Assembly (NCBI RefSeq): GCF_000242595.2
Contig: NC_017098.1
Coordinates: 868,001 to 932,000, forward strand
DNA from: Spirochaeta africana DSM 8902
GTDB lineage: Bacteria; Spirochaetota; Spirochaetia; DSM-27196; DSM-8902
Direction: 5' to 3'
DNA length: 64,000 bases
Made by a program: the position numbers and the translations under genes. The number at the start of each line of letters is the position of its first letter. Position 1 is the first letter of the stretch. Below the pieces are notes generated by a model, which ran no database searches, was not told the DNA's origin, and saw only the letters and a list, made by a program, of their open reading frames with translations. Shown here one piece after another: positions 13,022-28,238 of the stretch.

Positions 13022-13060
13022 AAACGGTATGCGCCGACGTCCAGGCATACCGTTTTTTTA
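13022..13060 (+). terminator. Rho-independent terminator after coaBC
   Basis: Two perfect 11-bp arms, AAACGGTATGC (13022-13032) and GCATACCGTTT (13045-13055), with a 12-base loop and a run of seven T. The second arm lies inside the 42-bp direct repeat that bounds the accessory island. Confidence 0.85.
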
Positions 13061-13080
13061 TGCCCGAACGGGATGTGCGT
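13039..13080. repeat. 42-bp direct repeat, left boundary of island
   Basis: Identical over 42 bp to 25989-26030. It begins in the loop of the coaBC terminator (GTCCAGGCATACC...) and ends in GGGATGTGCGT. A related copy of its first 28 bases, with one extra T, lies at 15362-15390. Confidence 0.85.
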
Positions 13081-13090
13081 TGAGTGCCTC

Positions 13091-13119
13091 TTGTTCAGGC
13101 CATATTGCTCGACTATAAT
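13091..13119 (+). promoter_or_regulatory. Promoter of the first MNT-HEPN module
   Basis: TTGTTC at 13091-13096, a 17-bp spacer and TATAAT at 13114-13119. The ATG at 13126 is only six bases downstream of the -10 box and there is no Shine-Dalgarno, so the mRNA is probably leaderless. Confidence 0.65.
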
Positions 13120-13125
13120 TGGAAT

Positions 13126-13422
13126 ATGATCAAGGAAGGCTTGCCAGAGGATTATCTCCAGGACTTGAACACGGCTGTGAGCTTTCTCAATGCTGAAGGT
13201 TGTCACGAGATCTACCTGTTCGGTTCGCTGTCAACTGGTAATTTCAATCAGGGCTCTGATATTGATCTTGCGGTACGAGGTGTAGACCCTAAGCGGTATT
13301 TCTCTATATATGGTCAGCTTCTGCTTCAGCTCAAACATCCTCTGGATCTTGTTGATCTGGATATTCAACCTGCATTTGGAAAGAAGCTCCTGGAATCAGG
13401 GCAGTTGCAACGGATATATTGA
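13126..13422 (+). CDS. MNT-type nucleotidyltransferase (antitoxin of a HEPN/MNT pair)
   Basis: About 98 residues from the ATG at 13126. The nucleotidyltransferase signature LFGSLSTGNFNQGSDIDLAV is intact, with both catalytic Asp residues in SDIDLAV and a third acidic residue in LVDLDIQP. Proteins of this kind (MntA) neutralise HEPN ribonuclease toxins by adenylylating them. The stop overlaps the start of the HEPN gene. Because the toxin gene is broken by an IS, this antitoxin would now be unopposed. Base composition is clearly more AT-rich than coaBC upstream. Confidence 0.85.
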   Translation: MIKEGLPEDYLQDLNTAVSFLNAEGCHEIYLFGSLSTGNFNQGSDIDLAVRGVDPKRYFSIYGQLLLQLKHPLDLVDLDIQPAFGKKLLESGQLQRIY

Positions 13423-13585
13423 GAATGAGAAAAGATGATCTTGCTATTGAGTTTCAGAAGATTGATGAGGAAGTAGTGCTTCTGGACCGTCTGATAATGA
13501 TTAAAACACAGCGATCGTTGGATTCAATTGAACTTCGAGCAGCAGCATTTTCTATCACCAGCATTTATAACGGGTTGGAAAAAAT

Positions 13586-14926
13586 GGTAGTGTCAAATAT
13601 CTTGCGCAAATTCAGCGTCCATCAATCTGTGACCCTGCTGTTATGATGCCTGATGATCGTGATCGTACTCGATCATCAGATCCATATTCAGATATTTCCG
13701 TTCACTCCATGTTGAGTTCGAGATGTGGCGCAGTCGTGCTGCAACCAGCATCAGTGCTGACTCACCATCAGGGAACGAACCGATTACACGTGTCCTCCTT
13801 CTGATTTCTCGCATGATTCTTTCAAGCCCGTTATTGGTCCTGATCCGTTTCCAGTGTTCGACCGGGAAATAATAATACGAGAAGGTTTCTAATGCACCTT
13901 CTCGAACGATCTCCGCTGCTTTGGACAATTTCATTTCAATCAGTTTCTTCGCAATCTGGTCTTTCTTTCGGACTGCCTCTTCCAGGTTTTCCTGGGCATG
14001 AATGGCCTTCAACATGGTTGCAACAGCTTTGACTTTTCCCTGCGGAACAAAGCTGAATACATTGCGGTAAAAATGCACTACGCACCGCTGCCACCGGGAA
14101 TCAGGAAAAAACTCTGGTATCGCTTCTACCAATCCCAGAGACTTGTCAGAGATAAACATCTCCACTGTTTCCAGTCCCCGGCCTTTCAAATAGCGGAGAA
14201 ATCGCTGCCAGCTGTCTTTGTCTTCCTTGGTGCCTTCGGCAACCCCGATTATCTCCCTGAAACCATCCTGATTAACGCCTATGGCTACCAGAACGGATAC
14301 ATTGCGTACTTCACCAGCCCAGGATCGTTTCATCCAGATGCCATCAAGGTAGACATAGGTGTAGCGCTGCTTCAACGGCAGGTTGCGCCATTTTTCAATT
14401 TCTTCGTAGATTTTCTTATTGAGGTTGCTGATAGTTCCTGGTGAGACCTTGGCACCCCAAAGGGCTTCGGTGATATCCTCGACACGTCTGACAGAAACGC
14501 CAGCCAAGTACATCTCTACCATTGCCTCCTCAACAGAGATCTCGCGTCGCTTATACCGTTCAATAATGGCAGTTTCAAACGTCACCTTCTTCAGCTTGGG
14601 AACCTGCAGATTCACTTCGCCTGCTTTCGTTAGCAGTTTCCTATCATAATGTCCGGCACGATACCCCGTTCGCTCAGAGCTGCGCTCATGTTTTTGCGCA
14701 TTACACAGCTGTTCTGCTTCTGCCTCCAGCATAGCGTTCAAGGTTTCCTCCACCGTCTCCCTGACAAAATTACCCAAATGGTCTTTGACTTCCTGCTCGT
14801 TTATCTCGATAATCTTACCCATGGGGTCCTCCTTCTGACTTGGTTTGGGTCGTACTTAATCAATCGTCAGATTGAGGACTTTCTTTTTATCGAAACTTGA
14901 AATTGCGCAAGATATTATACGTTATC
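13586..14926 (-). mobile_element. IS256-family insertion sequence (IS-1 of this window), 1,341 bp
   Basis: Ends are defined by imperfect terminal inverted repeats of about 29 bp. Both contain AATATCTTGCGCAA, and about 23 of 29 positions agree when the right end is reversed. The element is flanked by an 8-bp duplication GAAAAAAT. It carries one transposase gene and lies inside a HEPN toxin gene in the opposite orientation to it. The sharp target duplication and intact transposase suggest a fairly recent insertion. Confidence 0.85.
13641..14822 (-). CDS. IS256-family (mutator type) transposase
   Basis: A 393-residue transposase. Mutator-type DDE features: YVYLDGIWMKRS with the first Asp, ETVEMFISDKSLGLVEAIPEFFPDSRWQRCVVHFYRNV with the second Asp and the C/H motif, and the Glu region NNGLERIMREIRRRTRVIGSFPDGESALML. 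GGAGG lies just before the ATG. It is only distantly related to the second IS256-type transposase at 24365-25561, so these are two different elements and not copies. Confidence 0.93.
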   Translation of the reverse strand: MGKIIEINEQEVKDHLGNFVRETVEETLNAMLEAEAEQLCNAQKHERSSERTGYRAGHYDRKLLTKAGEVNLQVPKLKKVTFETAIIERYKRREISVEEAMVEMYLAGVSVRRVEDITEALWGAKVSPGTISNLNKKIYEEIEKWRNLPLKQRYTYVYLDGIWMKRSWAGEVRNVSVLVAIGVNQDGFREIIGVAEGTKEDKDSWQRFLRYLKGRGLETVEMFISDKSLGLVEAIPEFFPDSRWQRCVVHFYRNVFSFVPQGKVKAVATMLKAIHAQENLEEAVRKKDQIAKKLIEMKLSKAAEIVREGALETFSYYYFPVEHWKRIRTNNGLERIMREIRRRTRVIGSFPDGESALMLVAARLRHISNSTWSERKYLNMDLMIEYDHDHQAS

Positions 14927-15225
14927 GAAAAAATTCTACTGTTGTTGTTGGGTGAAAGCCGTATGCAATCATCACCAACCTGGCATGCCGATCTACTTGC
15001 GGAATCCAAATCCCGGGGATGCATTACCGAAGATCTGTATATGCACTTAGCAGCTTTTCTCGGATTTCGGCACTTTGTAAGACACGCATACAGTTTCGAA
15101 ATCAAAAATGAACCTGTTGAAGCGGTCCTCGATAGCGTGAAGACGGTCGTTGAAGACTTCAAGCGTGAAATAACCGCGGTGCAGTGATTCGTAAGAGCTA
15201 ATAGCACTCCGGGATCACAAAATTC

Positions 15226-15390
15226 CCAACTATGAGAAAACCTGTAGAAAATCACCAGAAAAACCTGCATAATACGCGGAAACCCTGCTGATTCTGAATA
15301 AAGGAAAATTTCCAAGTGTCCACTGTAGCAGGAATTAGCTAATCCCTGCTAAAACTCCGGTGTCCAGGCATACCGTTTTTTTTATGCCCG
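15226..15390. repeat. Interspersed repeat, copy A (165 bp)
   Basis: Starts CCAACTATGAGAAAACC and runs to ATGCCCG; a 163-bp copy with a few small differences lies at 25854-26016. Each copy sits directly after a HEPN gene: copy A begins about 39 bases after one stop codon, copy B covers the other stop. There is no open reading frame in it. Its last part is the sequence shared with the 42-bp island boundary repeats. Confidence 0.85.
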
Positions 15391-15539: not shown

Positions 15540-17111
15540 ATGAGGGTGTTGCTGGTTACCTGCGAAGACCCTGGAAACCCATTAGGAGGAATGGGAGTCT
15601 TTATTCGAGAGTTTTCGCAGACGCTGAAAACACAATGCGAGGTAAAAGTCCTGCTGGTGGAGACTAATCAGGGCCAAGAAGTGTCTCCGCTGGTAGATTA
15701 TGTTGTTCGACCTGATGTCGGTATTTCTGTAACGAACAGTGAAGCTGTGTTACTGTCTGGTGCCCATTCAGCATATACAAAAGTAATGAAGGCGCTGGAT
15801 GGCTGGTGCCCTGATATCATACACTGCAACGATAGGCAAACCTATTTGCCATTTCTGTATTGCGAAAATGTGGTTTTTTCGCTGCACCTAAGCTTGCCGG
15901 ATCTGTTTGGGTTTCGGAACCTGGATGATAGATGGTTTCTGGAGATGAAGATTGAGAAGGCAGCTGCCAAGCACGCTCGGGCATTCTGTGTCTATTCTTC
16001 ATATTACCAGAATCGAGTTCTCGATAACCTTAGTCAGTATGCCTCTCCTGTCTGTCTGCCGCTGGGTATCCACCCGGAACACTATTATTCGCAGAAAAGC
16101 CGCAACAAGAAGGTCATTAGTTTCTTTGGTCGGCTGGTACAATATCAGAAAGGAGCGGATACCTTTCTGGATGCTGTAAAACGATTTTCGCCGGAATACT
16201 TGAAGGAGTATGCCGTCGAGTTCAAGCTGTTCGGGAAGACGAAAGAGCCAGAGCGTTTTCAGCATCCAAATATCGATTCTATACAGTTTGTTGATGGGGC
16301 TGGTAAATATGCTGCCTATGCCGAAACTGATATTGTAGTCATGCCCAGCACCTATGAGCCTTTTGGGTTGGTTGGTATCGAAGCTATCGCATCCGGGTGC
16401 CTGTTGCTAGCGCCAGAGGGGCTGGGTATGGATGAATACCTCCAGTCGGGAAAGAATTTTCTGCCAATACAGTCCAGTGCTGACAGTATTTATTCGACGC
16501 TTGATAGTCTTATTCGCGACTGGGATAATGTGAGGCAGTTCCAACAAACGGCTCAGGAGACTGTACAGCACTGGACATGGAAGCGCAGTGTGCAGAAGCA
16601 TCTGGAAATCTATCGTGCCGTACTTTCTGGTCGTATAAATCATTACCAGGCAGTTAATTCTTCTCTCGCAAGGGATGTCCTGACATGGCGAGAACAGGAA
16701 TTGGAAACACGGACCTCGCTGGAGCAGGTTAAAAAAGCATTAAATATGTCCGTTGGCTCCGTGCTGCTAATCGGTGCAGAACACAACCAAGGTGGTCAGG
16801 TGGCGGTGTACACTGGGTTGGCTGAGCATTTGCCGTATGCAGATTATTCGTTCGATACGGTTGTGGCACTCCATGAAATTGAATACGGAGTAGATGTCCA
16901 GCTTGCTCTGGCTGAGATCTCGCGGGTGGCTGAATCCAGCATTCTACTGGCGATAACCATTGGTTCTGCAAAAATACACCAGGTTTTTCAGTTCAATTCG
17001 GTTTCGGACGTGGAGGAACAGCTTGCACCGCTGTCCAACTCATGGGAGTGGTCGACAGATCAGCAGCACGACGTTGTATGGGTCAAGCTAAAACGAGTTG
17101 CCTGTACCTAA
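15540..17111 (+). CDS. GT4 glycosyltransferase with C-terminal methyltransferase-like domain
   Basis: A 523-residue protein. Residues 1-360 form a GT-B fold of family GT4: PLGGMGVFIREF near the N-terminus, PDIIHCNDRQTYLP, FFGRLVQYQKGADTFLDA and the donor-site EPFGLVGIEAIASG (E-x7-E). After a short helical linker, residues of about 400-520 resemble the class I SAM methyltransferase pattern (VGSVLLIGAE, LPYADYSFDTVVALHEIEYG). The usual DxGxG glycine motif is degenerate (LIGAEHNQGG). It leads the cluster containing two double-glycine peptides and their exporter, so it may decorate those peptides with a sugar. A role in surface polysaccharide is the main alternative. Confidence 0.78.
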   Translation: MRVLLVTCEDPGNPLGGMGVFIREFSQTLKTQCEVKVLLVETNQGQEVSPLVDYVVRPDVGISVTNSEAVLLSGAHSAYTKVMKALDGWCPDIIHCNDRQTYLPFLYCENVVFSLHLSLPDLFGFRNLDDRWFLEMKIEKAAAKHARAFCVYSSYYQNRVLDNLSQYASPVCLPLGIHPEHYYSQKSRNKKVISFFGRLVQYQKGADTFLDAVKRFSPEYLKEYAVEFKLFGKTKEPERFQHPNIDSIQFVDGAGKYAAYAETDIVVMPSTYEPFGLVGIEAIASGCLLLAPEGLGMDEYLQSGKNFLPIQSSADSIYSTLDSLIRDWDNVRQFQQTAQETVQHWTWKRSVQKHLEIYRAVLSGRINHYQAVNSSLARDVLTWREQELETRTSLEQVKKALNMSVGSVLLIGAEHNQGGQVAVYTGLAEHLPYADYSFDTVVALHEIEYGVDVQLALAEISRVAESSILLAITIGSAKIHQVFQFNSVSDVEEQLAPLSNSWEWSTDQQHDVVWVKLKRVACT

Positions 17112-17220
17112 GGATTCGGATGGACAAGCAAAGGAGAATGCTGCAGCATCACGATGAAATAGGATTTAAAACATGCTGGCGCGCGACGGCATGAAAAACA
17201 AAAAGCATGGAGGTTTCAAC

Positions 17221-17343
17221 ATGAAAAAGGTAATTACTGGATTTCAAGAAGTTCAGGATCGAGAACGGCTTATGATTGAAGGGGGGTATGCCGGTTTTTG
17301 GAATGCGGGGTGGGACTATCAATTTCCCTCTCATCTGCTGTAA
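17221..17343 (+). CDS. Double-glycine leader peptide 1 (putative bacteriocin/RiPP precursor)
   Basis: A 40-residue gene with GGAGG at 17209-17213, seven bases before the ATG. Residues 1-22 form a charged leader (with FQEVQDRE) ending in IEGG. Cleavage after GG would release an 18-residue core, YAGFWNAGWDYQFPSHLL, which is rich in aromatic residues and has no Cys. The leader matches that of the next gene at the same positions: F8-Q9-E10, D13, I/V19-E20-G21-G22 and then Tyr23. The downstream C39-peptidase ABC exporter is the expected processing and export machine. Function of the core is unknown: an antibacterial peptide, a signal or a surface-acting peptide are all possible. Confidence 0.8.
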   Translation: MKKVITGFQEVQDRERLMIEGGYAGFWNAGWDYQFPSHLL

Positions 17344-17370
17344 TCCATAATGAGTCGACAGGAGGTATTT

Positions 17371-17499
17371 ATGGTTCAAATTCATAAGCATTTCCAAGAA
17401 ATTGAAGACATTGAACTGTTTTGCGTTGAAGGCGGTTATGGTTCGGGATGTCAACGCTACGGAGTCCCGTGTCACCGACTTCCTATTGGTGTAATATAG
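17371..17499 (+). CDS. Double-glycine leader peptide 2 (putative bacteriocin/RiPP precursor)
   Basis: A 42-residue gene with AGGAGG at 17360-17365, five bases before the ATG. The 22-residue leader contains FQEIEDIE and ends in VEGG; the core is YGSGCQRYGV followed by PCHRLPIGVI. The core has two Cys six residues apart that could form a disulfide or thioether, and it shares only the first Tyr with core 1. Similar leaders with different cores are what is expected of a two-peptide product or of two separate products served by one exporter. No immunity gene is obvious. Confidence 0.82.
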   Translation: MVQIHKHFQEIEDIELFCVEGGYGSGCQRYGVPCHRLPIGVI

Positions 17500-17592
17500 G
17501 AATAAATTTGGATTGATATATCAATTATTTCTACAAGTCTAGACGGAGATGGCACTTGATCTATGTGCATCCAACTCGTCTGGGTTGTATGT

Positions 17593-17634
17593 GTGTCTCC
17601 TGTATATGAACAAAGTATACAGGAGACACTGTTT
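17593..17634 (+). terminator. Strong hairpin after the peptide genes (terminator or attenuator)
   Basis: Perfect 14-bp arms (17593-17606 and 17616-17629, GTGTCTCCTGTATA and its complement), a 9-base loop and a short T-run. It lies between the peptide genes and the hydrolase/exporter genes, so it probably gives more peptide mRNA than downstream mRNA. The rest of 17500-17661 is AT-rich and non-coding. Confidence 0.75.
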
Positions 17635-17661
17635 TAAGCACGTCAAATGGAGCTGAGTGTC

Positions 17662-19029
17662 ATGAAAGCAATCTTTATCGTTCTTGCGTATTTTTATTTA
17701 TCGGGATGTAGTACTTACGATTTGAAAATCGACGCCCCCGACAACTCACGGATTGATGAAAAAATTATTCTCTCAATCCATGGGAGTGAATCCGGTGAAA
17801 AAGTCGAGGTACAGTTTCAAACTGCGGATAACAATGGAGATCTCTGGCAGTCAAGGGCGACATTCAGCGCTAATGAAAACGGGATTGTCGATTTTGGCTC
17901 CGCGGCCCCTCAGTCAGGCAGTTATTCCGGAGTTGATCCCATGGGGATGTTCTGGTCTATGGAACCGATTGAAGATAATCACCAGACTATAACATACCAA
18001 CCGCCTGAATCGGGTATGGAAGTAGATATTTCTGTTCAATCTGAATCGGGAGCTAGAGGCAGGGCAACGATTTCTCGCAGTGTAGGCGAACATTCAATCC
18101 AGATCGATTGGGTCTCTGAAAATGGTGTGGTTGGAGCCTTGTTTTCACCAGAGACTGACAGTGACACGGTTCTCCCTGGAATAATTCTGCTGCATGGGCG
18201 ACCGGCATCTTTTCTATACACAGAACCTTTGGTGTTGGCCGGGCATGGCTATCGTGTGTTTGCGCCAATGTATCTGCAGCCACCCCGTGCTCGTCAGATT
18301 GCTGCTGCTTTGGAGCTGGATGGATTGTTGGATCTACCGGTAACATTGGAAGCACGCCCGATTGAGTATGTTCAGGATGCTATCGATTGGCTGCGGGCTC
18401 GGCCGGATGTAGCATCAGAATCTGTAGCAGTCGGTGGGTTCTCCGCCGGAGCAGAGCTGGCACTCATAGCTGGTGAGTATCTTGATGGCATCAACACCAT
18501 AATCAGCTGGAATGGCCCAGGGGTAAAGAGTGCTGCCTTTGTTGATGACGGCAGACGTGTAGATGAATCCGCTTGGAGTTTTGAAGGGAATCCCTTACCG
18601 TATCTCCGTGCCGGACAGATGGATGTAGTGGAGACCGCTATCAACAATTCTCAGCGTGGTGATTCCGATATGGACTTGGTTACAATATGGGAACATGTTT
18701 CGAATATGGTGCCGGAGCAGGCTCGGATACAGGTGGATAAAGCTAATGCGCCGGTGCTGCTTATCTCCGGAAAAGACGACCTTATGGTTAAGGGGTTTGT
18801 GCTGCAGGAAGGTGTTAATCAATCCTTGAAGGATATTGGGTACGACAGACCACATGAGCATCTCGCGTATCAGGATGCTGGCCACTGGTTTAGTGTGCCT
18901 TATATACCTGCCTGGGTCGATGTAGGTCGTGCTGCTTCGATCGGCCGCCCTCCAGGAGGCACAATGGAAGGAAATGCCGCCGCAGCGGCAGATTCCTGGC
19001 CTAATGTTCTTAAATATCTTCAAAAATAA
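17662..19029 (+). CDS. BAAT-type alpha/beta hydrolase lipoprotein
   Basis: About 455 residues from the ATG at 17662; an in-frame ATG at 17647 also exists. It has a short signal peptide with lipobox YLSGC (Cys16). An N-terminal beta domain resembles the acyl-CoA thioesterase/BAAT N-terminal region (SGSYSGVDPMGMFWSMEP). An alpha/beta hydrolase domain follows, with nucleophile GGFSAGAE (about Ser261), acid in ISGKDDLM and His in DAGHWFS. All three catalytic residues are present. Related cytoplasmic enzymes cleave or transfer acyl groups from CoA, but this one would be outside the inner membrane. In this cluster it may acylate or deacylate the exported peptides, or protect the producer; this is inference. 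Confidence 0.75.
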   Translation: MKAIFIVLAYFYLSGCSTYDLKIDAPDNSRIDEKIILSIHGSESGEKVEVQFQTADNNGDLWQSRATFSANENGIVDFGSAAPQSGSYSGVDPMGMFWSMEPIEDNHQTITYQPPESGMEVDISVQSESGARGRATISRSVGEHSIQIDWVSENGVVGALFSPETDSDTVLPGIILLHGRPASFLYTEPLVLAGHGYRVFAPMYLQPPRARQIAAALELDGLLDLPVTLEARPIEYVQDAIDWLRARPDVASESVAVGGFSAGAELALIAGEYLDGINTIISWNGPGVKSAAFVDDGRRVDESAWSFEGNPLPYLRAGQMDVVETAINNSQRGDSDMDLVTIWEHVSNMVPEQARIQVDKANAPVLLISGKDDLMVKGFVLQEGVNQSLKDIGYDRPHEHLAYQDAGHWFSVPYIPAWVDVGRAASIGRPPGGTMEGNAAAAADSWPNVLKYLQK

Positions 19030-19040
19030 TAATTAAGCAT

Positions 19041-21179
19041 ATGAAAGTATTGCTACAGAGTGACTCATCGGACTGTGGGCCAGCATGTATTGCGATGGTG
19101 TGTCGGCGATTTGGAAAAAAGATATCCTTAGAGAGAGCAAGGGCTATTGCGGGGACTGATAAAGCAGGAACCAATCTTAAAGGTATTGCTACTCTGGCTG
19201 AATATGTAAACCTGGATGCCAAAGTAGTGAAGGGTGATCATGATGCTCTTGGACCAGAATTGCCTGTACCTTTTATAGCTCACATTCATCGTAAAGGGTA
19301 CCACTATGTCGTGGTGTACAAGGTAACTCGCAAACATATATACATTGCGGATCCAGCTCGTGGAAAAATAAAATTTACTTATGGAAATTTTTCTTACTAT
19401 TGGACCGGGTATGCAGTATTCCTCTCTCCCTGCGATTCTTTTAAAAAATCAAAAAATACTGATATATCACTATTTAAATTCATTCCAATTCTGCAAGCGC
19501 ATAAAAGTACTATCTTTCTTACAGTGCTGGTATCTGTAGTAATTACTATTTTTGGAATTGCCGCGGCACAATACTTTCGATTTCTTATAGATGAAGTTCT
19601 TTTTATTCAGTCTCGAAACTTGTTGCACACAATATCTTTCGGCGTTGTTTTTATCGTTTTATTGCAATCAGTATTGACGGCTATCAGATCACATATGCTG
19701 CTTGTTTTTAGTTCAAAAGTTGATATTAGCTTAAATTTAGCTTTTTTTCATCACGTGCTGAAGTTGCCGCTTTCATTTTTTGATTCTAGAAAAGTTGGCG
19801 AAGTTATCTCCCGAGTAATTGAAACAGCAAGGATACGCGAAGCACTTTCAACTGCTACGTTTACTATATTCTTTGACACAATGATGGTGGTGGTTATTGG
19901 ATTGGTTTTGTTTTTACATAACCCAATACTTTTTTTTCTTGTATTTGCCTTTGTTCCTCTATCAAGTGTTATCGTATGGGGCTTCTCTCGACCCTTTAAA
20001 AGACATTATCAAGACATGTTTTATCAAATTGCCGAGAACAGAGCAATGTTAGTCGAGCTCGTTTCAGGTATGGCTACCATAAAGGGGCATACTGCCGAGC
20101 AAGAAAGTTTTAACAAAATTGAAGAAAAATTTGTAGATTCAATATGGCCATTATATAAAATTGGTGTGCTACGCAATGTTCAGCAAATTTTTACTGATTT
20201 AATTGACGGCTGGGGCGGCAAGCTGCTGTTCTGGATCGGCAGTGTGCTGATTCTGGACGGGGTTATCTCGCTGGGACAGCTTATTGCCTTCAACGCCCTG
20301 CTTGGCTACTTTCTTGGTCCATTGCAGAACCTCATTAATCTGCAGCCCAGTCTGCAGGAGGCCTTTGTGGCTGCCCGGCGTGTCGGGGAGATTCTCGACC
20401 TCGAGGTGGAGCAGCAGGAGGACAGGGCATTACTGAAGCCAGAGCGGGTTATTGGCCCGATCGATTTTCGCAACGTATACTTTCGCTATGGGACCAAAAA
20501 GCTGGTATTAAAGGACATATCGTTTCATGTACCGGCTGGAGACTCGGTGGGAATTGTCGGGCCAAGCGGCAGCGGCAAGTCCTCGCTCATCAAGCTGTTA
20601 ATGAAGTTTTACACCCCGGAGGAGGGCAGTATTACCATCGACGGGGCAGACATGCGGGATATCGACAGCACCTGGCTGCGGCAGAAGATCGGCTATGTCA
20701 GTCAGGATATCTTTCTGTTTCACGGATCAATCCGCGATAACATCGCCCTTGGCAGGCCGGATGCCGAGTTTGCCGACATAGTCGAGGCCGCCAAAAAAGC
20801 GCAGGCCCATGATTTTATCGCCGAGATGCCGGCACGCTACGACAGCGAACTGTCCGAGCAGGGCTCCAGCCTGTCCGGCGGGGAGCGGCAGCGGTTGGCG
20901 ATTGCCCGCGCCTTGCTGGGCCAGCCGGATATCATTGTGTTTGATGAGGCTACCAGTAACCTTGATACCTTCAGTGAGTCGGAGCTGCAGGATACCATCT
21001 GGCGGCTCAAGGACGACGGGGTGACGGTGTTTATTGTCGCCCACCGGCTGACCACGGTAACCCACTGTGACACCATCCTCGTGCTGGACGGCGGAGAGAT
21101 AATCGAACGGGGCAATCATGCTTCACTGGTGGCACAGGGCGGGCGCTACGCCCAGCTATGGGAGCGGCATACCGGATGA
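19041..21179 (+). CDS. Peptidase-containing ABC exporter (C39 peptidase, PCAT)
   Basis: 712 residues with the full bacteriocin-exporter layout. A C39 peptidase domain comes first (1-135), with catalytic Cys in SSDCGPAC, His in GYHYVVVY and Asp in IADPARG. Six membrane helices follow (about 150-430). The ATPase domain is last (about 465-712), with Walker A GPSGSGKSS, signature LSGGERQRLAIARALL and Walker B IIVFDEATSNLD. An intact peptidase means it should cut double-glycine leaders during export. The first 1,160 bases are AT-rich like the island, whereas from about 20,205 onward the gene has host-like GC content, so it looks like a mosaic. Confidence 0.95.
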   Translation: MKVLLQSDSSDCGPACIAMVCRRFGKKISLERARAIAGTDKAGTNLKGIATLAEYVNLDAKVVKGDHDALGPELPVPFIAHIHRKGYHYVVVYKVTRKHIYIADPARGKIKFTYGNFSYYWTGYAVFLSPCDSFKKSKNTDISLFKFIPILQAHKSTIFLTVLVSVVITIFGIAAAQYFRFLIDEVLFIQSRNLLHTISFGVVFIVLLQSVLTAIRSHMLLVFSSKVDISLNLAFFHHVLKLPLSFFDSRKVGEVISRVIETARIREALSTATFTIFFDTMMVVVIGLVLFLHNPILFFLVFAFVPLSSVIVWGFSRPFKRHYQDMFYQIAENRAMLVELVSGMATIKGHTAEQESFNKIEEKFVDSIWPLYKIGVLRNVQQIFTDLIDGWGGKLLFWIGSVLILDGVISLGQLIAFNALLGYFLGPLQNLINLQPSLQEAFVAARRVGEILDLEVEQQEDRALLKPERVIGPIDFRNVYFRYGTKKLVLKDISFHVPAGDSVGIVGPSGSGKSSLIKLLMKFYTPEEGSITIDGADMRDIDSTWLRQKIGYVSQDIFLFHGSIRDNIALGRPDAEFADIVEAAKKAQAHDFIAEMPARYDSELSEQGSSLSGGERQRLAIARALLGQPDIIVFDEATSNLDTFSESELQDTIWRLKDDGVTVFIVAHRLTTVTHCDTILVLDGGEIIERGNHASLVAQGGRYAQLWERHTG

Positions 21180-22324
21180 ACTTTCAACCCGTTCCTGCCA
21201 ACAAGTTGCGCCACTCGGCGGTCTTTTTCTCACTCTCGGTTCCTACCGGTGCTCTGGTGTTTCTCTGGGTGTTGCTGCTCGCTCTTGCCGGTGGGGCAGT
21301 CTATTCAGTGTTCGGCAGCATTGACGAGTGGGCGCGCGGCACGGCCATGCTGCGACCGTTGGTGGAGGTTGCCGAGGTTCGCAACGAGACTTCCGGCCGG
21401 GTGAGCAGGCGACCAGTTGAGCATGGCCAGCATGTGGCAGCCGGGCAGACTCTGTGGGTAATTGATACCGAGGTGATCGAGGCCGAGATTGCCGGGCTTG
21501 AGACTGAACACACGCGTACGCAACAGGAGCTTGCTGAACAACAGGCAGTTGTTGCAAGCCTGCAGGCAGGCGAGAATCAGGTGCCGCCAGAGCTGGAGAA
21601 TGCCTCCCGACAGGTTGATCTGCTGTTGCTGGAACACACCAGACTGCAGCTGCAGACCGAAGATGCTCGCCGCGCCTGGCAGCGCGAGGATCAAGCTCCG
21701 ACTAGTCTGCGCCGCAGCGATCGGGTGGAGGAGCTGGAGCGGAGTTATCGCATGCAGCGGCTGTCCCTGGATGGCTTTCTCCCGCAGGAGCTGGTGTCGC
21801 GCACCGAGCGTATTCGTACCCTCGAATCGCGACTCAATGAGATCCAGCAGTCTCTGACAGCTTCACGCAAGCGATTGTCAGAATCGCATGTTGTTGCTCC
21901 AGTAGACGGTACAGTCGAGCTGGTGCGGGATTTCTCGACAGGAGCTTTTGTTGGAGCGGGCGAGGAGCTGATGCGTGTAGTGCCGCAGCTGTCTGATCGC
22001 TTTCGGCTCATCGTAGAGGTACCCGAGCGCGAGGCTGCCGAGGTTTCGGAAGGGCAGCAGATTGTGCTGCGGTTCTCCGGCTTCCCGGTTGCCGAGTACG
22101 GTTCGGCCTATGCCGAGGTTGCCTATGTGCCGCAGGATGCCGAGCAGGGTGCAGATGGACAGCCGGTGTACCGGGTACGTGCCGAGCTTGCACGCACCTA
22201 TCTGACCGACCGCGACGGGCGAAACTTTCCCCTGCGACCCGGGATGACCGCTAATGCGCGGATCATCACCAGAACCACCCCGATCTACCGCTATATCCTG
22301 CGTAAAATGGATATCCGCACATGA
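21176..22324 (+). CDS. HlyD-type membrane fusion protein
   Basis: About 382 residues from the ATG at 21176, which overlaps the exporter stop (ATGA) with GGGAGCGG upstream. One N-terminal membrane helix (about 20-45) is followed by a lipoyl-type half motif (VRNETSGRVSRRPVEHGQHV), a long coiled coil (about 105-225), the second lipoyl half (SHVVAPVDGTVELVRDFSTG) and a beta-barrel domain. It would bridge the ABC exporter and the outer membrane channel encoded next, as in type I secretion. Confidence 0.92.
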   Translation: MNFQPVPANKLRHSAVFFSLSVPTGALVFLWVLLLALAGGAVYSVFGSIDEWARGTAMLRPLVEVAEVRNETSGRVSRRPVEHGQHVAAGQTLWVIDTEVIEAEIAGLETEHTRTQQELAEQQAVVASLQAGENQVPPELENASRQVDLLLLEHTRLQLQTEDARRAWQREDQAPTSLRRSDRVEELERSYRMQRLSLDGFLPQELVSRTERIRTLESRLNEIQQSLTASRKRLSESHVVAPVDGTVELVRDFSTGAFVGAGEELMRVVPQLSDRFRLIVEVPEREAAEVSEGQQIVLRFSGFPVAEYGSAYAEVAYVPQDAEQGADGQPVYRVRAELARTYLTDRDGRNFPLRPGMTANARIITRTTPIYRYILRKMDIRT

Positions 22325-23733
22325 TCTCGCGCCTGGTACCTGCTGCACTTCTTGGATGCCTCGTCTCATTGTCCGTGACCGGACTGGAAAACAGCCTTGA
22401 GCAGCTGTTGGTCGGTTCGCAACGCCTGGAGGAAACCCGGTTGCAGCGCGAGATCGCCCGCATCGGGGCTGACGAAATCGGTGTCGACCGGCTGCCGGAG
22501 CTGTATCTGCAGGCACCCTCTGCGTACAGAATCGACATCCCTCCGGAAGGAGATCACTCCTGGCAGGCACAGCTTGGTGTTCGCCAGCAGCTGCCCTTTG
22601 GTATCGCAAGCGATGTCAGTTGGCAGCATGGGCTGCGGCACCGTGAGTCGGAATTCATCGAGGCCACTGAGTTCAGCGATGAAGAGAAAATCCCCGGAGG
22701 GTTTATGCACTCACTGTCGGCAGAGGCAGGACTCACGGTTCCTTTGTATGTCAGCCGCTACTGGAATCTTCCTTCCGTGCAGCGGACCACGGCACATGAC
22801 CGCGCAGCAGCAGCACACACTCGCGACCGTACCCGACTCATACGGGAATTCCTGGCTGACTGGTTTTCACTGTATCGAAATTATTTAGAAGTCAAGCAAG
22901 CCCGCCAGCACGAGGTGTTTGCCCTTTCTGCCGTGGAACTGCAAGAGCAGCTTATTGAACGCGGCGAACGAGCTGTGCATACCTTGTGGGAGTATCAGCG
23001 ATCTGCGCATGAAGCAGAGCGTGAGCGTATACAGCGTGAGCATGCCTATGATCGCGCCACTGAACAGATGCACGTGCGACATGGCATTGAGTTCCCTGAA
23101 AATCCCGAACTGCCCGACTCCCGGTTCTCGTGGCAGTACTATGGCATCTCCCCTTTGTACCCAACCGAACACAGAGTAATGCAGCTGGACAGTAAGACAG
23201 AAGAACTGTCGTACCAGCGTTCACGGCAAGGTTCTGCTCCCCGGCTGTCTCTTTCTTTCTCGCTTGCCGGACCAACGCAGGAAACTGCCGGTGACATACG
23301 CGAAGGGTTTACCGATCAATTCGGCGATTGGGATGACTGGAGCCCGTCATTGTCTGTCGGTTTTTCACTGTCAAGCAGGGATGTGCAGTCGGCTGCCCGT
23401 GACAGCCAACGCCACCGCCTGTCGGCACATCTGACTGTACTGGAAACCAGCCATCGCCTGCAGCAGCACGAGACTGATATTAATCATCTGATCACACTGC
23501 GAGACAACTACGCCCGACTGTATCAGCGGGAATCCGAGGCAGTGCAGAATATGCAGCGTTACTATAGCGATGTCCTTCAGCAGCACGAACGCGGCGAGAT
23601 CGACACCCGCACACTGCAGGAAATACAGCTGTCCCTGTCCGACATGCAAACCGCGCTCAGCCTAACCGAATCTCATCTGCAGGAAACCCGGCTGGAACTG
23701 GAGTTGTTGGCAGGTGGGCCTATAGACAGATAA
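22321..23733 (+). CDS. TolC-like outer membrane channel protein
   Basis: A 470-residue protein with a short signal peptide and two halves of long alpha-helical coiled-coil segments separated by beta stretches (SLSAEAGLTVPLYVSRYW; LSLSFSLAGP; SPSLSVGFSLSS). This is the pattern of outer membrane efflux proteins, although the sequence is divergent. The ATG overlaps the HlyD stop (ATGA). It completes a tripartite secretion route for the two small peptides. It is the last gene of the operon; a new promoter for the second MNT-HEPN pair starts 15 bases downstream. Confidence 0.85.
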   Translation: MISRLVPAALLGCLVSLSVTGLENSLEQLLVGSQRLEETRLQREIARIGADEIGVDRLPELYLQAPSAYRIDIPPEGDHSWQAQLGVRQQLPFGIASDVSWQHGLRHRESEFIEATEFSDEEKIPGGFMHSLSAEAGLTVPLYVSRYWNLPSVQRTTAHDRAAAAHTRDRTRLIREFLADWFSLYRNYLEVKQARQHEVFALSAVELQEQLIERGERAVHTLWEYQRSAHEAERERIQREHAYDRATEQMHVRHGIEFPENPELPDSRFSWQYYGISPLYPTEHRVMQLDSKTEELSYQRSRQGSAPRLSLSFSLAGPTQETAGDIREGFTDQFGDWDDWSPSLSVGFSLSSRDVQSAARDSQRHRLSAHLTVLETSHRLQQHETDINHLITLRDNYARLYQRESEAVQNMQRYYSDVLQQHERGEIDTRTLQEIQLSLSDMQTALSLTESHLQETRLELELLAGGPIDR

Positions 23734-23747
23734 CCGTGTGTGTCGGG

Positions 23748-23776
23748 TTGCGCACCAGCGGTACTCCACCTATACT
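23748..23776 (+). promoter_or_regulatory. Promoter of the second MNT-HEPN module
   Basis: TTGCGC at 23748-23753, 17-bp spacer, TATACT at 23771-23776, and ATG at 23783 six bases further on. Spacing and lack of leader are the same as at the first MNT-HEPN module. Confidence 0.6.
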
Positions 23777-23782
23777 TGCTGT

Positions 23783-24100
23783 ATGGTAACCGAACAGACA
23801 ATGTCGGACATAGTAACTACCATTCTGAATCTGACTTCACCAAAGAAAGTAATTCTGTTTGGCAGTTACGCCAGAAAAACCATGTTGGCCGATAGTGATA
23901 TCGACTTGATGGTCATCGTGTCTGATGACGTAGCTGACGTTCGATCATTGACAGCCGATCTACACATCGCACTGAGCCGTATTGTCGATGTACCATGTGA
24001 CCTCCTGGTCGAGCGGGAGTCAGTTTTTGTGGCACGTGGAGCTCTACCTACTCTGGAACATACAATTTTGCAGGAGGGCTATACCCTGTATGCAGCTTAA
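23783..24100 (+). CDS. MNT-type nucleotidyltransferase (antitoxin, second pair)
   Basis: About 105 residues from the ATG at 23783; an alternative start is ATG 23801. The signature VILFGSYARKTMLADSDIDLMV contains both catalytic Asp residues, and CDLLVERES follows later. Its stop overlaps the start of the HEPN gene at 24090, with GGAGG at 24073-24077 for that gene. It is a different subfamily from the first MNT protein, which argues for separate acquisition and not a local duplication. Confidence 0.87.
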   Translation: MVTEQTMSDIVTTILNLTSPKKVILFGSYARKTMLADSDIDLMVIVSDDVADVRSLTADLHIALSRIVDVPCDLLVERESVFVARGALPTLEHTILQEGYTLYAA

Positions 24101-24267
24101 AAACCTGGTGGGTGAATGGCAGGAGAAGTCCAGGAATGATATCCTTTCTGCGCGGTTCCTGGTCAATATGCGGCCGATGCCTGTTGAGGTTATCGGCTTC
24201 CATGCTCAGCAGGCAGTAGAAAAGCTTTTCAAAGCAGTATTGGTTTTGCACTCAATCAGTCCACAAA

Positions 24268-25616
24268 GATAGTGTCCTGAAACGTTCGCAATTTGAAAAG
24301 TAAAAGGAGCCATTGGATCCTCCGAAAGGTGTAGTAGCCAAACCATACCAAAGGAGAACACACAATGGCCCCACTCAAAGCTACCGCAGATTTCGAGAAA
24401 CTTCTATCCCGTTTCATAGGTGAACAGGATCCTCTGCTTGAAATGCTCAAATGGATGACCGAACAGCTCATGCGCATTGAAGCTGAAAATAAAGCCGGTG
24501 CCGTGAAAGGCAAGCATGTCGCAAATCGGACGACTCATTTCAGCGGTTCTCGTGTCAGAAGATTCGATACCCGTCTGGGCACCATGTACCTCGTCGTTCC
24601 AAAGCTGCGCAAGGGCGGGTACATTCCCTTTTTTGTAACCGAGAAGAAACGCTCGGAACAAGCACTCCTACAGGTAGTGCAGGAAGCATTTATCAATGGT
24701 GTTTCTACCCGTAAGATCGATCGCCTCGCCAAGGAGCTGGGGATTGAATCCATATCGGCCAGCCAGGTCTCTGAAATTAATAAGGGGCTGGATGAACAGG
24801 TTCAGCAATTTCGCAACCGAGAGCTGGATTCAGAATATCCAGTTATCTGGATTGATGCACTGTATGAAAAGATACGCCATGGCCAGAGAGTGCAGAATGA
24901 AGCAGTGATGGTGGTCTGTGGCCTTAATTCTGCTGGAGAGCGCGAAATACTTGCTATAGAGCCCATGGAAACTGAATCAGAGGAAACATACGCCGACCTG
25001 TTTCAGCGCTTAAAACAGCGCGGTCTCAAGCATGTATGGCTTGTGGTATCAGATGCACACCAGGGATTGAAAAATGCAATCCGATCAGAATTTGTCGGCG
25101 CATGTTGGCAACGGTGTAAAGTGCATTTCATGCGGAATGTCCTCGCCAAAGTACGCAGCAAACACAAGGAACAATTTGCAGAGCGATTAAAGCACATCTG
25201 GCTGCAGCCAGATCAAGCTACCGCGCGAAAATACGCCAAGCAGCTTATGGATGACTGGGAAGACTCTTGCTCTGATGCAGTCGAAATCCTGGATTCCGGA
25301 CTTGATGACTCACTGCAGTTCTATGCCTTTGCAAAAATCGATGCACGGAAAATCTCCTCCACCAATATGCTGGAGCGATTGAACAAAGAAATCCGTCGAC
25401 GATCAAAGGTGGTTGGCGTCTTTCCGTCCAGGGAGTCATACATCAGAATGGTCACCTGCTATCTGATAGAATACACCGAAGACTGGACAACCGGCAGATC
25501 GTACATTAAAAAGGAATCACTGGATGAACAGAAAGAATTCATCCTGAGAACGGTTGCGTAACCAGCCGGAGGCTGATGGCTCCAGGGTGAAATTGCAAAC
25601 ACGTTTGGACACTATC
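24268..25616 (+). mobile_element. IS256-family insertion sequence (IS-2), 1,349 bp
   Basis: Terminal inverted repeats begin GATAGTGTCC at both ends and agree at about 22 of 29 positions, ending in GCAATTT. The flanking 8-bp target duplication is TCCACAAA. One transposase gene fills the element. It lies in the same orientation as the HEPN gene that it interrupts. Confidence 0.9.
24365..25561 (+). CDS. IS256-family (mutator type) transposase
   Basis: A 398-residue transposase with the mutator DDE pattern: YPVIWIDALYEKIR, LKHVWLVVSDAHQGLKNAI with CWQRCKVHFMRNVL, and SSTNMLERLNKEIRRRSKVVGVFPSRESYIRMV carrying the Glu. AAGGAG precedes the ATG at 24365. It looks intact, so the element could still be active. 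Confidence 0.95.
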   Translation: MAPLKATADFEKLLSRFIGEQDPLLEMLKWMTEQLMRIEAENKAGAVKGKHVANRTTHFSGSRVRRFDTRLGTMYLVVPKLRKGGYIPFFVTEKKRSEQALLQVVQEAFINGVSTRKIDRLAKELGIESISASQVSEINKGLDEQVQQFRNRELDSEYPVIWIDALYEKIRHGQRVQNEAVMVVCGLNSAGEREILAIEPMETESEETYADLFQRLKQRGLKHVWLVVSDAHQGLKNAIRSEFVGACWQRCKVHFMRNVLAKVRSKHKEQFAERLKHIWLQPDQATARKYAKQLMDDWEDSCSDAVEILDSGLDDSLQFYAFAKIDARKISSTNMLERLNKEIRRRSKVVGVFPSRESYIRMVTCYLIEYTEDWTTGRSYIKKESLDEQKEFILRTVA

Positions 25617-25853
25617 TCCACAAAAAACCCATGATTTATTGTACCTGTACAAAATGTGTCGGAGTCACACCGATATTCAGATCGATTGCGAAGCAGTGTG
25701 TGCCCGATTGAATCCCTATTCTGTCAATCATCGTTATCCGGGGGAGGTCTCTGTCTCATCCAGTCAGGTGCTTGAGGATTTACAGGACGCAGAGTCTGTC
25801 TGTGCTCAGACACAAGCCTATCTGGATTCAAAAATCACCGGACTCCAGGCGGA

Positions 25854-26016
25854 CCAACTATGAGAAAACCTGTAGAAATCACCAGAAAAACCTGCATAAT
25901 ACGCGGAAATCCTGCTGATTCTGAATAAAGAAAAATTTCCAAGTGTCCACTGTACGGGAAATTAGCTAATTCCTGCTAAAACTCCCTTGTCCAGGCATAC
26001 CGTTTTTTTATGCCCG
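25854..26016. repeat. Interspersed repeat, copy B (163 bp)
   Basis: Near-identical to 15226-15390, with single-base differences and small indels. It covers the stop codon of the second HEPN gene and runs into the right 42-bp boundary repeat. No gene is seen in 25864-26174 apart from this repeat and the promoter region of the next lipoprotein. Confidence 0.85.
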
Positions 26017-26030
26017 AACGGGATGTGCGT
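25989..26030. repeat. 42-bp direct repeat, right boundary of island
   Basis: Identical to 13039-13080. Beyond it the sequences diverge, so 13039-26030 is a unit of about 13 kb bounded by direct repeats. Confidence 0.85.
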
Positions 26031-26174: not shown

Positions 26175-28238
26175 TTGAAAAAGACCAAGATCGGCGTAAT
26201 GTTTGCATCCATACTTTTCGTATTGTTCTGGCTCATAAGCTGCAGCAATCCCCTGGGTAATGATGGTTCTACTGGAGGTTCTTCAGCAACTACCGGCACA
26301 GATGCCGGGGGTGGCTCAGTCGCGTCCGTTACCATCAGCTTCGTGCTGGATACGGATACGGGCGATGGCTTCACCCTGTCTACGAACCACTCAGCCCCGG
26401 TACCGATTACCGTGGCTGCTGGTGCTCCGGTGCGCTTGACCCAGGGGATCGGATTTACCGCCGAGGCAGTAGGGGCAGGCCCTGGCGGGAGTTCGGTGAC
26501 CTTCCACGCATCGGGCTGGTCAACCGAATCCTATAGTAGCCAGTTCCAGAAGATTATGAATCCCGGGGGACCGGCGCCGTCCGGCCCAGGCTATTATCTG
26601 CCAGGCTTCGAGGCAAGCTTTTCCGAAGACACCACGCTCTATATGCGATGGCTGCCGGCGTTAGACAATATTGCAGCGCAGGTGACCTTTGTCGAGCCAG
26701 GAAGCGGCACAGCGACCGTGACCGGACCCGTTTTGCACCTTCGTGACGTACTTCCATTTGAGCGCACGGCCTATTTTCAGGATGCCGTTCCGGCTCCGTG
26801 GAGTGTCAACCCAAACGAGCGCGTTTGGGAATGGGAAAGTGAAACGGTTTCCTACTCACGAACTGCCAATAACCCGCCTGCCGGTACCCCTGCAGTGTGG
26901 CAGTTTGCGTTCAACAATATAACGGAATATAACAACGCTATAGCTTCTGCTTCTGCAGGCAAGCGCCCAGTGAGCATTAGCTACACACCACGGGAAGTGT
27001 ACACCATTACCTTCGATCCCAACGGTGGAGCCATGCCCGGTAGTGCAGTCACTCGCGATGCATTTGAGGGCATAACTATTGCCAGTAATCTTGGCTGGTG
27101 GAACATGAGCAGCGCGACACAGCTGCCTGAACCCACACGGGGTGATCTGATTTTCGGTGGCGACTGGTTCTTTGCCCCAGACTACGTTGGCGACGATTGG
27201 TTTAGCAACCCGACAGCAAATACCACACTGTACGCTCGGTGGCAGGCGGAAATTACCTTCGATGGTAATGGAGGGGGTGCACCTGCGCCGGTACTTACCA
27301 ATGTGACCCCCGCTGGCGTAGCTGTGGTTACCGAGGCCCCGGCGATAAGTACCTCTCGCCCTCAACACGATGTTTTTGGTGGTTGGTTTACCGAGCAGGG
27401 TCCTGGTCCGGAATACGTTGTCTCGCACAAGGTTTCCACAGGAGAAAACAGCCAGGATCCATTTACCATTGACTCTGTGACGGGACCCCTGACCCTGTAT
27501 GCCGGCTGGATTCCGAAGTATGAAATTGGTGAAGTACTGCCAGACAATCAAGGTATTATCTTCCATATCCTTGGGGGCAGTGAGCCGCAGAGAACACGTG
27601 CTCACACGAATGCACTTGAGGACGCCGGTTTCGCGGCAGGCAACACTGGCTGGCGTTTTCTGGCGGTGGCACCAGTCGAAGAACCTGAGGATACGGTCCA
27701 GGCACCAAATTTTAATCCGGGTTGGTTAGCATCAGGAGTAGACCCGAATCTCGTCTTTACGACCGATCCAGGAGAAGGTAATGCCGCCCATGGAAAGTTC
27801 GACCTCCTGAAGACTTTCGATGTGTTAGGGGGTGGCCGACCTTCCACGGCAGAAGTTGTCGCCTGGGCAGATGGCGGCGAATCGGTAGCACGGCAAGCCC
27901 GAGAATCAGACATCGGGGGACTCAAGCCAGGCACTATTACAGATCTCAATGCGGTCTGGTACTTGCCGTCAGCGGCTGAGTTGATCGAGATAGCCAATGC
28001 TCGCACTTCTGCAGGAACATCCGTTTGGGAAATCGCCGGAATGAGATTCGGCACAGGCAATACTCGCAGATACTGGACTTCAACTACGTATAATGGAGGA
28101 TATGGTCAGGGAAGCATGGACAGTAACGCTTTCACCGTTCATTTGCCTGACGCAACGTCAACACCCCAGGTTGAGACCTTCTCGCGAAGCACGAATGGTA
28201 CGAATACTCCCCGTGTCCGCCCGGTCCGCCGCTTCTAA
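26175..28238 (+). CDS. Large repeat-containing lipoprotein with C-terminal Lcl/DUF1566-like domain
   Basis: 687 residues. A signal peptide with lipobox LISC is followed by a Ser/Gly/Thr-rich spacer. Then come several beta-repeat units of the InlB B-repeat (Listeria-Bacteroides) kind: YTITFDPNGGAMPGSAV, TTLYARWQAEITFDGNGGG, PLTLYAGW. The C-terminal region (about 480-687) has the pattern GWRFLAVAP, WYLPSAAELIEI, YWTSTTY and ends in RPVRRF. The last region resembles the Lcl C-terminal/DUF1566 domain common in spirochete surface lipoproteins. It is probably exposed on the cell surface, and adhesion is a possible role. The start is TTG, set by AAGGAG at 26161-26166; the upstream ATG at 26170 runs into a stop. 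Confidence 0.75.
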   Translation: MKKTKIGVMFASILFVLFWLISCSNPLGNDGSTGGSSATTGTDAGGGSVASVTISFVLDTDTGDGFTLSTNHSAPVPITVAAGAPVRLTQGIGFTAEAVGAGPGGSSVTFHASGWSTESYSSQFQKIMNPGGPAPSGPGYYLPGFEASFSEDTTLYMRWLPALDNIAAQVTFVEPGSGTATVTGPVLHLRDVLPFERTAYFQDAVPAPWSVNPNERVWEWESETVSYSRTANNPPAGTPAVWQFAFNNITEYNNAIASASAGKRPVSISYTPREVYTITFDPNGGAMPGSAVTRDAFEGITIASNLGWWNMSSATQLPEPTRGDLIFGGDWFFAPDYVGDDWFSNPTANTTLYARWQAEITFDGNGGGAPAPVLTNVTPAGVAVVTEAPAISTSRPQHDVFGGWFTEQGPGPEYVVSHKVSTGENSQDPFTIDSVTGPLTLYAGWIPKYEIGEVLPDNQGIIFHILGGSEPQRTRAHTNALEDAGFAAGNTGWRFLAVAPVEEPEDTVQAPNFNPGWLASGVDPNLVFTTDPGEGNAAHGKFDLLKTFDVLGGGRPSTAEVVAWADGGESVARQARESDIGGLKPGTITDLNAVWYLPSAAELIEIANARTSAGTSVWEIAGMRFGTGNTRRYWTSTTYNGGYGQGSMDSNAFTVHLPDATSTPQVETFSRSTNGTNTPRVRPVRRF

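What the first reader, a model, noticed from the sequence alone, without database searches (positions are those of the whole stretch)
15540..23733. Possible new class of modified exported peptide system: GT-methyltransferase, peptides, BAAT lipoprotein, PCAT-HlyD-TolC
The order glycosyltransferase/methyltransferase, precursor peptides, lipoprotein hydrolase, peptidase-exporter, adaptor, outer membrane channel is self-contained and within a mobile island. Each protein family is known. The combination with these peptides in a spirochete is, as far as I know, undescribed. A glycosylated and possibly acylated bacteriocin or signal is the simplest reading.
Basis: partly seen in the sequence, partly recalled or inferred. 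Interest (0 to 1): 0.82.

Follow-up and report, generated by a model that had tools for sequence, protein, structure and literature searches.

The report
Sugar-enzyme-linked exported peptide cluster in spirochete
A spirochete carries, on a foreign DNA island, a small operon for two short exported peptides, their exporter and a sugar-attaching enzyme; the same enzyme sits next to a matching family of exported toxin-like proteins in several other spirochetes, which suggests an undescribed kind of sugar-decorated bacterial weapon, though neither the sugar nor any killing has been shown.

Summary
Between 15540 and 23733 lie a GT4 glycosyltransferase, two short double-glycine-leader peptides, a BAAT-fold lipoprotein, and an intact C39 exporter (PCAT), HlyD adaptor and TolC-like channel. 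They sit on a low-G+C island bounded by a perfect 42-nt direct repeat. The 'methyltransferase' is a degenerate C-terminal domain without a SAM motif.

The proposed gene-neighbourhood test was run. Eleven loci of this GT family were found in spirochetes. Ten have a double-glycine-leader ORF beside the GT and nine have the PCAT (the other two contigs end). None looked like a polysaccharide locus. A leader profile searched over 385 genomes hit eight genomes: all seven that carry the GT, plus one weak hit. Most relatives carry long cargo: leader, Gly/Tyr-rich and usually Ser/Thr-rich linker, variable C-terminal domain. Secreted LRR or WG-repeat partners follow matching C-terminal domains across genera, as in toxin-immunity pairs.

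Best reading: a compact member of a spirochetal GT4-associated, type I-exported bacteriocin/toxin family. Export is near certain. Cargo glycosylation is likely but unshown, and the window cores are poor in Ser/Thr. The BAAT lipoprotein occupies the immunity slot; acylation has no support. New variant of a known kind.

The parts
13039..13080 (+). Left copy of a perfect 42-nt direct repeat bounding the island; part of an upstream terminator-like sequence
   Evidence: sequence
15540..17111 (+). GT4 glycosyltransferase (residues 1-~365) with a degenerate methyltransferase-like C-terminal domain (residues ~394-519)
   Evidence: Pfam/NCBIfam; EPFGLVGIE (EX7E) and GRLxxxxKG kept, no GxGxG SAM motif; model pLDDT 80, best PDB matches GlgM, sucrose-phosphate synthase, MshA
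17221..17343 (+). Peptide 1 precursor: MKKVITGFQEVQDRERLMIEGG|YAGFWNAGWDYQFPSHLL
   Evidence: GGAGG ribosome site just before the ATG; a longer frame opens at 17173
17371..17499 (+). Peptide 2 precursor: MVQIHKHFQEIEDIELFCVEGG|YGSGCQRYGVPCHRLPIGVI
   Evidence: AGGAGG ribosome site; a longer frame opens at 17350
17593..17629 (+). 15-bp hairpin followed by TGTTTT between peptides and lipoprotein: partial terminator or mRNA-stabilising element
   Evidence: z -4.4 for 17500-17646
17662..19029 (+). BAAT/acyl-CoA-thioesterase-fold lipoprotein (lipobox LSGC), Ser-Asp-His triad aligned with human ACOT4; sits in the position where relatives carry immunity-like genes
   Evidence: start chosen from ribosome site; ORF also opens at 17647
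19041..21179 (+). PCAT: C39 peptidase (SDCGPAC motif), membrane domain, ATPase; third-position G+C jumps from ~0.3 to ~0.7 near 20150
21158..22324 (+). HlyD-family periplasmic adaptor
22321..23733 (+). TolC-like outer membrane efflux protein
   Evidence: PF02321 E 7.5e-10
25989..26030 (+). Right copy of the 42-nt direct repeat

Best explanation
The operon makes and exports two small modified peptides that act against other bacteria. Steps: (1) ribosomes make two precursors with a shared double-glycine leader [sequence and profile evidence]. (2) The GT4 enzyme, possibly holding the precursor with its dead methyltransferase-like domain, transfers sugar to the cargo in the cytoplasm [inferred from near-exclusive linkage; acceptor residue unknown]. 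(3) The C39 domain of the PCAT cuts after GG and exports the core through HlyD and the TolC-like channel [family knowledge, catalytic residues kept]. (4) The core acts on competing cells [inferred from relatives that carry toxin/immunity-like pairs or bacteriocin-like cores with a CPBP gene]. (5) The BAAT-fold lipoprotein, in the slot where relatives place immunity-like genes, protects the producer or finishes the product outside the cytoplasm [positional inference].
For: GT family found in 7 of 392 Spirochaetota genomes, one more in a class sample and two named Treponema MAGs. A leader ORF lies beside the GT in 10 of 11 loci, and PCAT is present in 9 of 11. Leader profile over 385 genomes: eight hits, seven being exactly the GT genomes (Fisher p 3e-14). 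GT-less PCAT loci carry mostly ordinary short cores and no GT relative. Core starts with Tyr in 9 of 10 GT loci with cargo and 0 of 8 loci without GT (p 4e-4). Ser/Thr in the first 50 core residues is higher in GT loci (p 1e-3, window left out). Cognate pairs: CDIxxYN cargo is followed by an LRR protein in L014, L015 (twice) and L081; L013 and L015 cargo sharing a C-terminal domain are both followed by WG-repeat proteins. L011 has CPBP (PF02517 E 3e-11) where the window has BAAT. Active-site residues kept in GT4, C39 and BAAT.
Against: The window cores are only 18 and 20 residues with one Ser each and no Thr (5-6%), so the Ser/Thr-rich linker seen in most relatives is missing. L011, whose GT (38%) and PCAT (47%) are among the nearest to the window's, has cores not starting with Tyr and poor in Ser/Thr. 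The leader profile was trained partly on ORFs found beside GTs, so its concordance is inflated. No catalytic or antibacterial data exist; the similar T. denticola proteins showed no killing (PMC11879956). BAAT has no such linkage anywhere else. L024 has GT and PCAT but no leader ORF was found.
Confidence: 0.55

Rival explanations
1. Plain, unmodified class II microcin-like pair: PCAT, HlyD and TolC export two short peptides, and the GT4 serves another substrate (for instance surface glycans or the lipoprotein) and is only carried along.
For: Window cores are short and nearly free of Ser/Thr; GT-less spirochetes have ordinary leader peptides with PCAT; GT4 enzymes most often make glycans or small glycosides (closest folds GlgM, MshA, BshA).
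Against: The GT is adjacent to cargo or exporter in all 11 loci, across several families and genera, and the leader type is almost confined to GT genomes.
Confidence: 0.25
2. Peptide signal: the two cores are exported pheromones, with the BAAT lipoprotein as processing or degrading enzyme.
For: Two small cores from one leader family; the ComC model weakly matches a relative's leader (PF03047 E 0.0014).
Against: No sensor kinase or regulator in the cluster; relatives' cargo are mostly large proteins with partner genes, unlike pheromones.
Confidence: 0.12
3. Acylated product: the BAAT lipoprotein transfers an acyl group to the exported core, as BAAT conjugates amino acids.
For: Bile_Hydr_Trans plus BAAT_C domains with complete triad; it is the only enzyme besides the GT and the exporter.
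Against: It is a lipoprotein and so outside the cytoplasm where acyl-CoA is; its nucleophile is Ser as in thioesterases, not the Cys of BAAT (family knowledge); absent from all related loci.
Confidence: 0.08

Closest known systems
[quoted passage not shown]
   Same: Spirochete; double-glycine leader cargo upstream of a PCAT and HlyD; lipoprotein gene next to each cargo gene; tandem duplicated cargo/lipoprotein pairs; secreted
   Different: The papers report no glycosyltransferase there; cargo 167-614 residues; lipoproteins not BAAT; no killing seen. Sequences were not compared directly here
Bacteroidales leader-peptide RiPP clusters with accessory glycosyltransferase (BGC3, BGC9) and methyltransferase (BGC9) (PMC10352776)
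   Same: Gram-negative, GG-motif precursors, glycosyltransferase in the cluster; PCAT and outer membrane protein in BGC9
   Different: They carry radical SAM, LanC-like or LanM enzymes, absent here; GT subfamily not compared
Glycocins (sublancin, glycocin F, enterocin F4-9, pallidocin)
   Same: Double-glycine leader, PCAT export, dedicated glycosyltransferase in the cluster
   Different: Their S/O-glycosyltransferases are SunS-type GT2 (own knowledge); here GT4. Cores lack the paired disulfides
Class II microcins (colicin V export type)
   Same: GG leader, PCAT, HlyD-type adaptor, TolC-type channel
   Different: GT and BAAT lipoprotein in the operon; no small inner-membrane immunity protein; shorter cores
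Polymorphic toxin systems (PMC3482391)
   Same: Relatives (L015, L081, L017) have constant N-termini with variable C-terminal domains and a partner gene after most of them
   Different: The window cores are too short for a toxin domain; secretion is by a C39 type I exporter

Membership tests
PCAT/type I exported double-glycine peptide system | C39 peptidase-ABC exporter with intact catalytic Cys motif, plus adaptor and outer membrane channel | tested here: met
PCAT/type I exported double-glycine peptide system | Cargo with double-glycine leader next to the exporter | tested here: met
Glycocin | SunS-type GT2 glycosyltransferase (PF00535-like) | tested here: not met
   only GT4/GT5-type Pfam families match
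Glycocin | Core with two nested disulfides (four or more Cys) | tested here: not met
   0 and 2 Cys in the cores
Glycocin | Sugar on mature peptide | not testable with these tools
   needs mass spectrometry
Polymorphic toxin system | Constant N-terminus with variable C-terminal toxin domain and cognate partner | tested here: not met
   Window cores 18 and 20 residues; the feature is met in relatives L015, L081, L014, L013
Class I SAM methyltransferase (C-terminal domain of the GT) | Gly-rich SAM motif I | tested here: not met
   absent in all seven aligned proteins that keep the domain; reduced fold
GT4 glycosyltransferase | GT-B fold, EX7E and Arg/Lys donor-site residues | tested here: met
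BAAT/ACOT hydrolase | Bile_Hydr_Trans plus BAAT_C with catalytic triad | tested here: met
BAAT/ACOT hydrolase | Acyl-CoA thioester substrate | not testable with these tools
   lipoprotein location makes it doubtful
Bacteriocin | Kills other bacteria; immunity in producer | not testable with these tools
   no activity data; relatives have CPBP or LRR/WG partner genes

The most novel reading that the evidence does not exclude
A spirochetal family of type I-exported antibacterial proteins and peptides defined by a GT4 enzyme with a dead methyltransferase domain that glycosylates the segment just after the double-glycine cut, perhaps on the near-invariant first Tyr. Its cargo ranges from 18-residue cores to modular toxins with exchangeable C-terminal domains and cognate secreted immunity proteins.
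Probability: 0.4. Interest if true: 0.8.

Novelty: new variant of a known kind. Interest (0 to 1): 0.6.

Why it matters
If right, it would join two fields kept apart so far, glycosylated bacteriocins and modular (polymorphic) toxins, on one exporter, in a phylum with very few characterised antibacterial weapons. It would also give an enzyme and a leader that can be used as markers to find more, and a concrete explanation to test for the orphan 'bacteriocin-type signal domain' proteins of treponemes.

Tried and rejected
Methyltransferase activity: rejected, no SAM motif in any homologue. Acylation by BAAT: kept only as a weak rival. GT as part of a polysaccharide locus: no locus of that kind among eleven. 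BAAT as a conserved partner: rejected, only distant hydrolases in 385 spirochete genomes and generic annotated BAAT genes on plasmids. Fold of the CDIxxYN cargo domain: model pLDDT 64, too poor for a fold search; no Pfam family. No GT relative in plasmids. PCAT halves compared for a donor of the mosaic: the N half is less conserved against every homologue, so uninformative. Composite transposon: the two transposases are only 31% identical, so they do not form one.

Full report
What is there. The window is 868001-932000 of a single-contig genome of 3,285,855 bp. Seven genes run in one direction from 15540 to 23733: GT4 glycosyltransferase, peptide 1, peptide 2, BAAT-fold lipoprotein, PCAT, HlyD, TolC-like protein. 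HlyD overlaps both neighbours. The peptide starts at 17221 and 17371 are chosen because each follows a strong ribosome site. A perfect 15-bp hairpin with a short T run lies between peptides and lipoprotein, which would let the peptides be made in excess; that is inference.

The peptides are real by an independent test. A leader profile built only from other spirochetes ranks them first (E 0.0013) and second (E 0.54) of 734 ORFs in the window. With the full profile they are the only two hits in the genome. They share FQE(V/I)xDxE...EGGY; the cores are YAGFWNAGWDYQFPSHLL and YGSGCQRYGVPCHRLPIGVI.

The 'methyltransferase' is not evidently one in function. Residues ~394-519 match Methyltransf_11 weakly (E 5e-6). 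In an alignment of eight family members the seven that keep this domain lack the glycine-rich SAM motif; the eighth, a second GT in L011, lacks the domain altogether. The model shows a reduced Rossmann-like domain behind a GT-B fold. The GT half keeps EPFGLVGIE and the Arg/Lys donor site, so it should be active; the nearest solved folds are retaining GT4-type enzymes.

Neighbourhood test. The GT was searched in 392 Spirochaetota genomes: seven have it. Neighbourhoods were read. Eleven loci: window, L011, L012, L013, L014, L015, L016, L017, L023, L024, L059. A leader ORF adjoins the GT or lies within the same gene run in ten; L024 has GT and PCAT but no leader ORF was found. PCAT is present in nine; L017 and L059 are short contigs that end. 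HlyD is present where the contig is long enough, except that in L016 no HlyD-like ORF was matched. G191 (L015/L081) is decaying: two stops in the GT and a transposase inside the PCAT gene.

Searching the leader itself over 385 genomes gave eight positive genomes, seven of them the GT genomes. The eighth, G255, is a weak hit and is a plain bacteriocin-like peptide with PCAT-HlyD-TolC and no GT. Fisher p is 3e-14, with the warning that the profile was trained on ORFs found near GTs. C39 domains occur in 49 of 385 genomes; 42 of those lack the GT. Twenty GT-less PCAT loci were read: none has a GT relative, and where a leader ORF was recognised its core is short and ordinary in nearly all.

What the cargo looks like in relatives. 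In L012-L017, L023, L059 and L081 the leader is followed at once by Tyr and a Gly/Tyr-rich segment that is also rich in Ser/Thr in all but L059 (14% against 22-50%), then, in the long ones, a variable domain. In L015/L081 the N-terminal part is nearly constant while the C-terminal domain changes, the layout of polymorphic toxins. Four cargo proteins with a CDIxxYN domain (L014, L015 twice, L081) are each followed by a secreted leucine-rich-repeat protein, homologous across genera. L013 and L015 cargo that share a C-terminal domain (E 2e-9) are both followed by secreted WG-repeat proteins. Such matched pairs are what toxin and immunity genes look like; no activity was tested. L011 has short, partly hydrophobic, bacteriocin-like cores and a CPBP-family membrane protein exactly where the window has BAAT. 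CPBP proteins serve as bacteriocin immunity proteins in other bacteria (own knowledge).

How the window member differs. Its cores are tiny, nearly free of Ser/Thr (5-6%), and its partner is a BAAT-fold lipoprotein not seen near this GT in any other locus. The triad Ser-Asp-His aligns with human ACOT4. As a lipoprotein it is outside the cytoplasm, where acyl-CoA is not expected; a role in self-protection or in trimming the product is more plausible than acylation, but this rests on position only.

Mechanism and confidence. Export after C39 cleavage: from family and intact residues, about 0.9. Cargo glycosylation by the GT: linkage only, about 0.6. Antagonistic function: from relatives, about 0.65. 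BAAT as immunity factor: about 0.35. Export, cargo modification and antagonism together are put at 0.55 because the inferences are not independent.

Origin. The island has 37-52% G+C in a 58-60% background. It is bounded by 42-nt perfect repeats 12,950 bp apart, with a third partial copy at 15363; these three are the only copies found in the genome. Third-position G+C within the PCAT gene steps from ~0.3 to ~0.7 near 20150, and HlyD and TolC are host-like, so the operon looks like a fusion of an incoming cargo/recognition half with a resident exporter half; this is inference from composition. Mutator-family transposases also lie by the L013 and L014 loci, so the clusters seem to move often.

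Known and new. Literature searches found T. denticola leader proteins with lipoproteins and TepA/B (PMC11879956, PMC4947327) and Bacteroidales leader clusters with glycosyltransferases (PMC10352776), but no description of this GT4-linked set. Only open-licence papers were searched.

Noticed in passing
13039-13080, 15363-15380, 25989-26030: Perfect 42-nt direct repeat bounds a 12.95-kb island; a partial third copy lies inside, where a 134-nt stretch (15249-15382) is repeated at 93% at 25876-26009. The left copy overlaps a terminator downstream of a coaBC-like gene.
   Followed up: partly
13084-15187 and 23738-25863: Two MNT/HepT-like toxin-antitoxin pairs, each with its HepT gene apparently interrupted by a Mutator-family transposase; the two transposases are only 31% identical.
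   Followed up: partly
19041-21179: Third-position G+C inside the PCAT gene jumps from about 0.3 to 0.7 near 20150, suggesting a mosaic exporter gene.
   Followed up: partly
L015 and L081 (G191): Tandem array of at least seven leader-cargo genes with near-identical N-termini and swapped C-termini, next to a decayed GT and a PCAT gene interrupted by a transposase.
   Followed up: partly
L014 5723-6871 and 7418-8572: Two nearly identical secreted aspartyl-protease/PDZ-like proteins between GT and PCAT, alternating with leader cargo.
   Followed up: no
L120, L126, L127, L130, L131, L135, L136, L137: Tandem PCAT-like genes (about 26-31% identical to the window exporter) in several spirochetes, without GT; a separate exporter type.
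   Followed up: no
L139 9020-11053: A 677-residue ORF with a double-glycine leader beside a GT-less PCAT.
   Followed up: no
26175-28238: 687-residue protein with a List-Bact repeat, directly outside the right island end.
   Followed up: no
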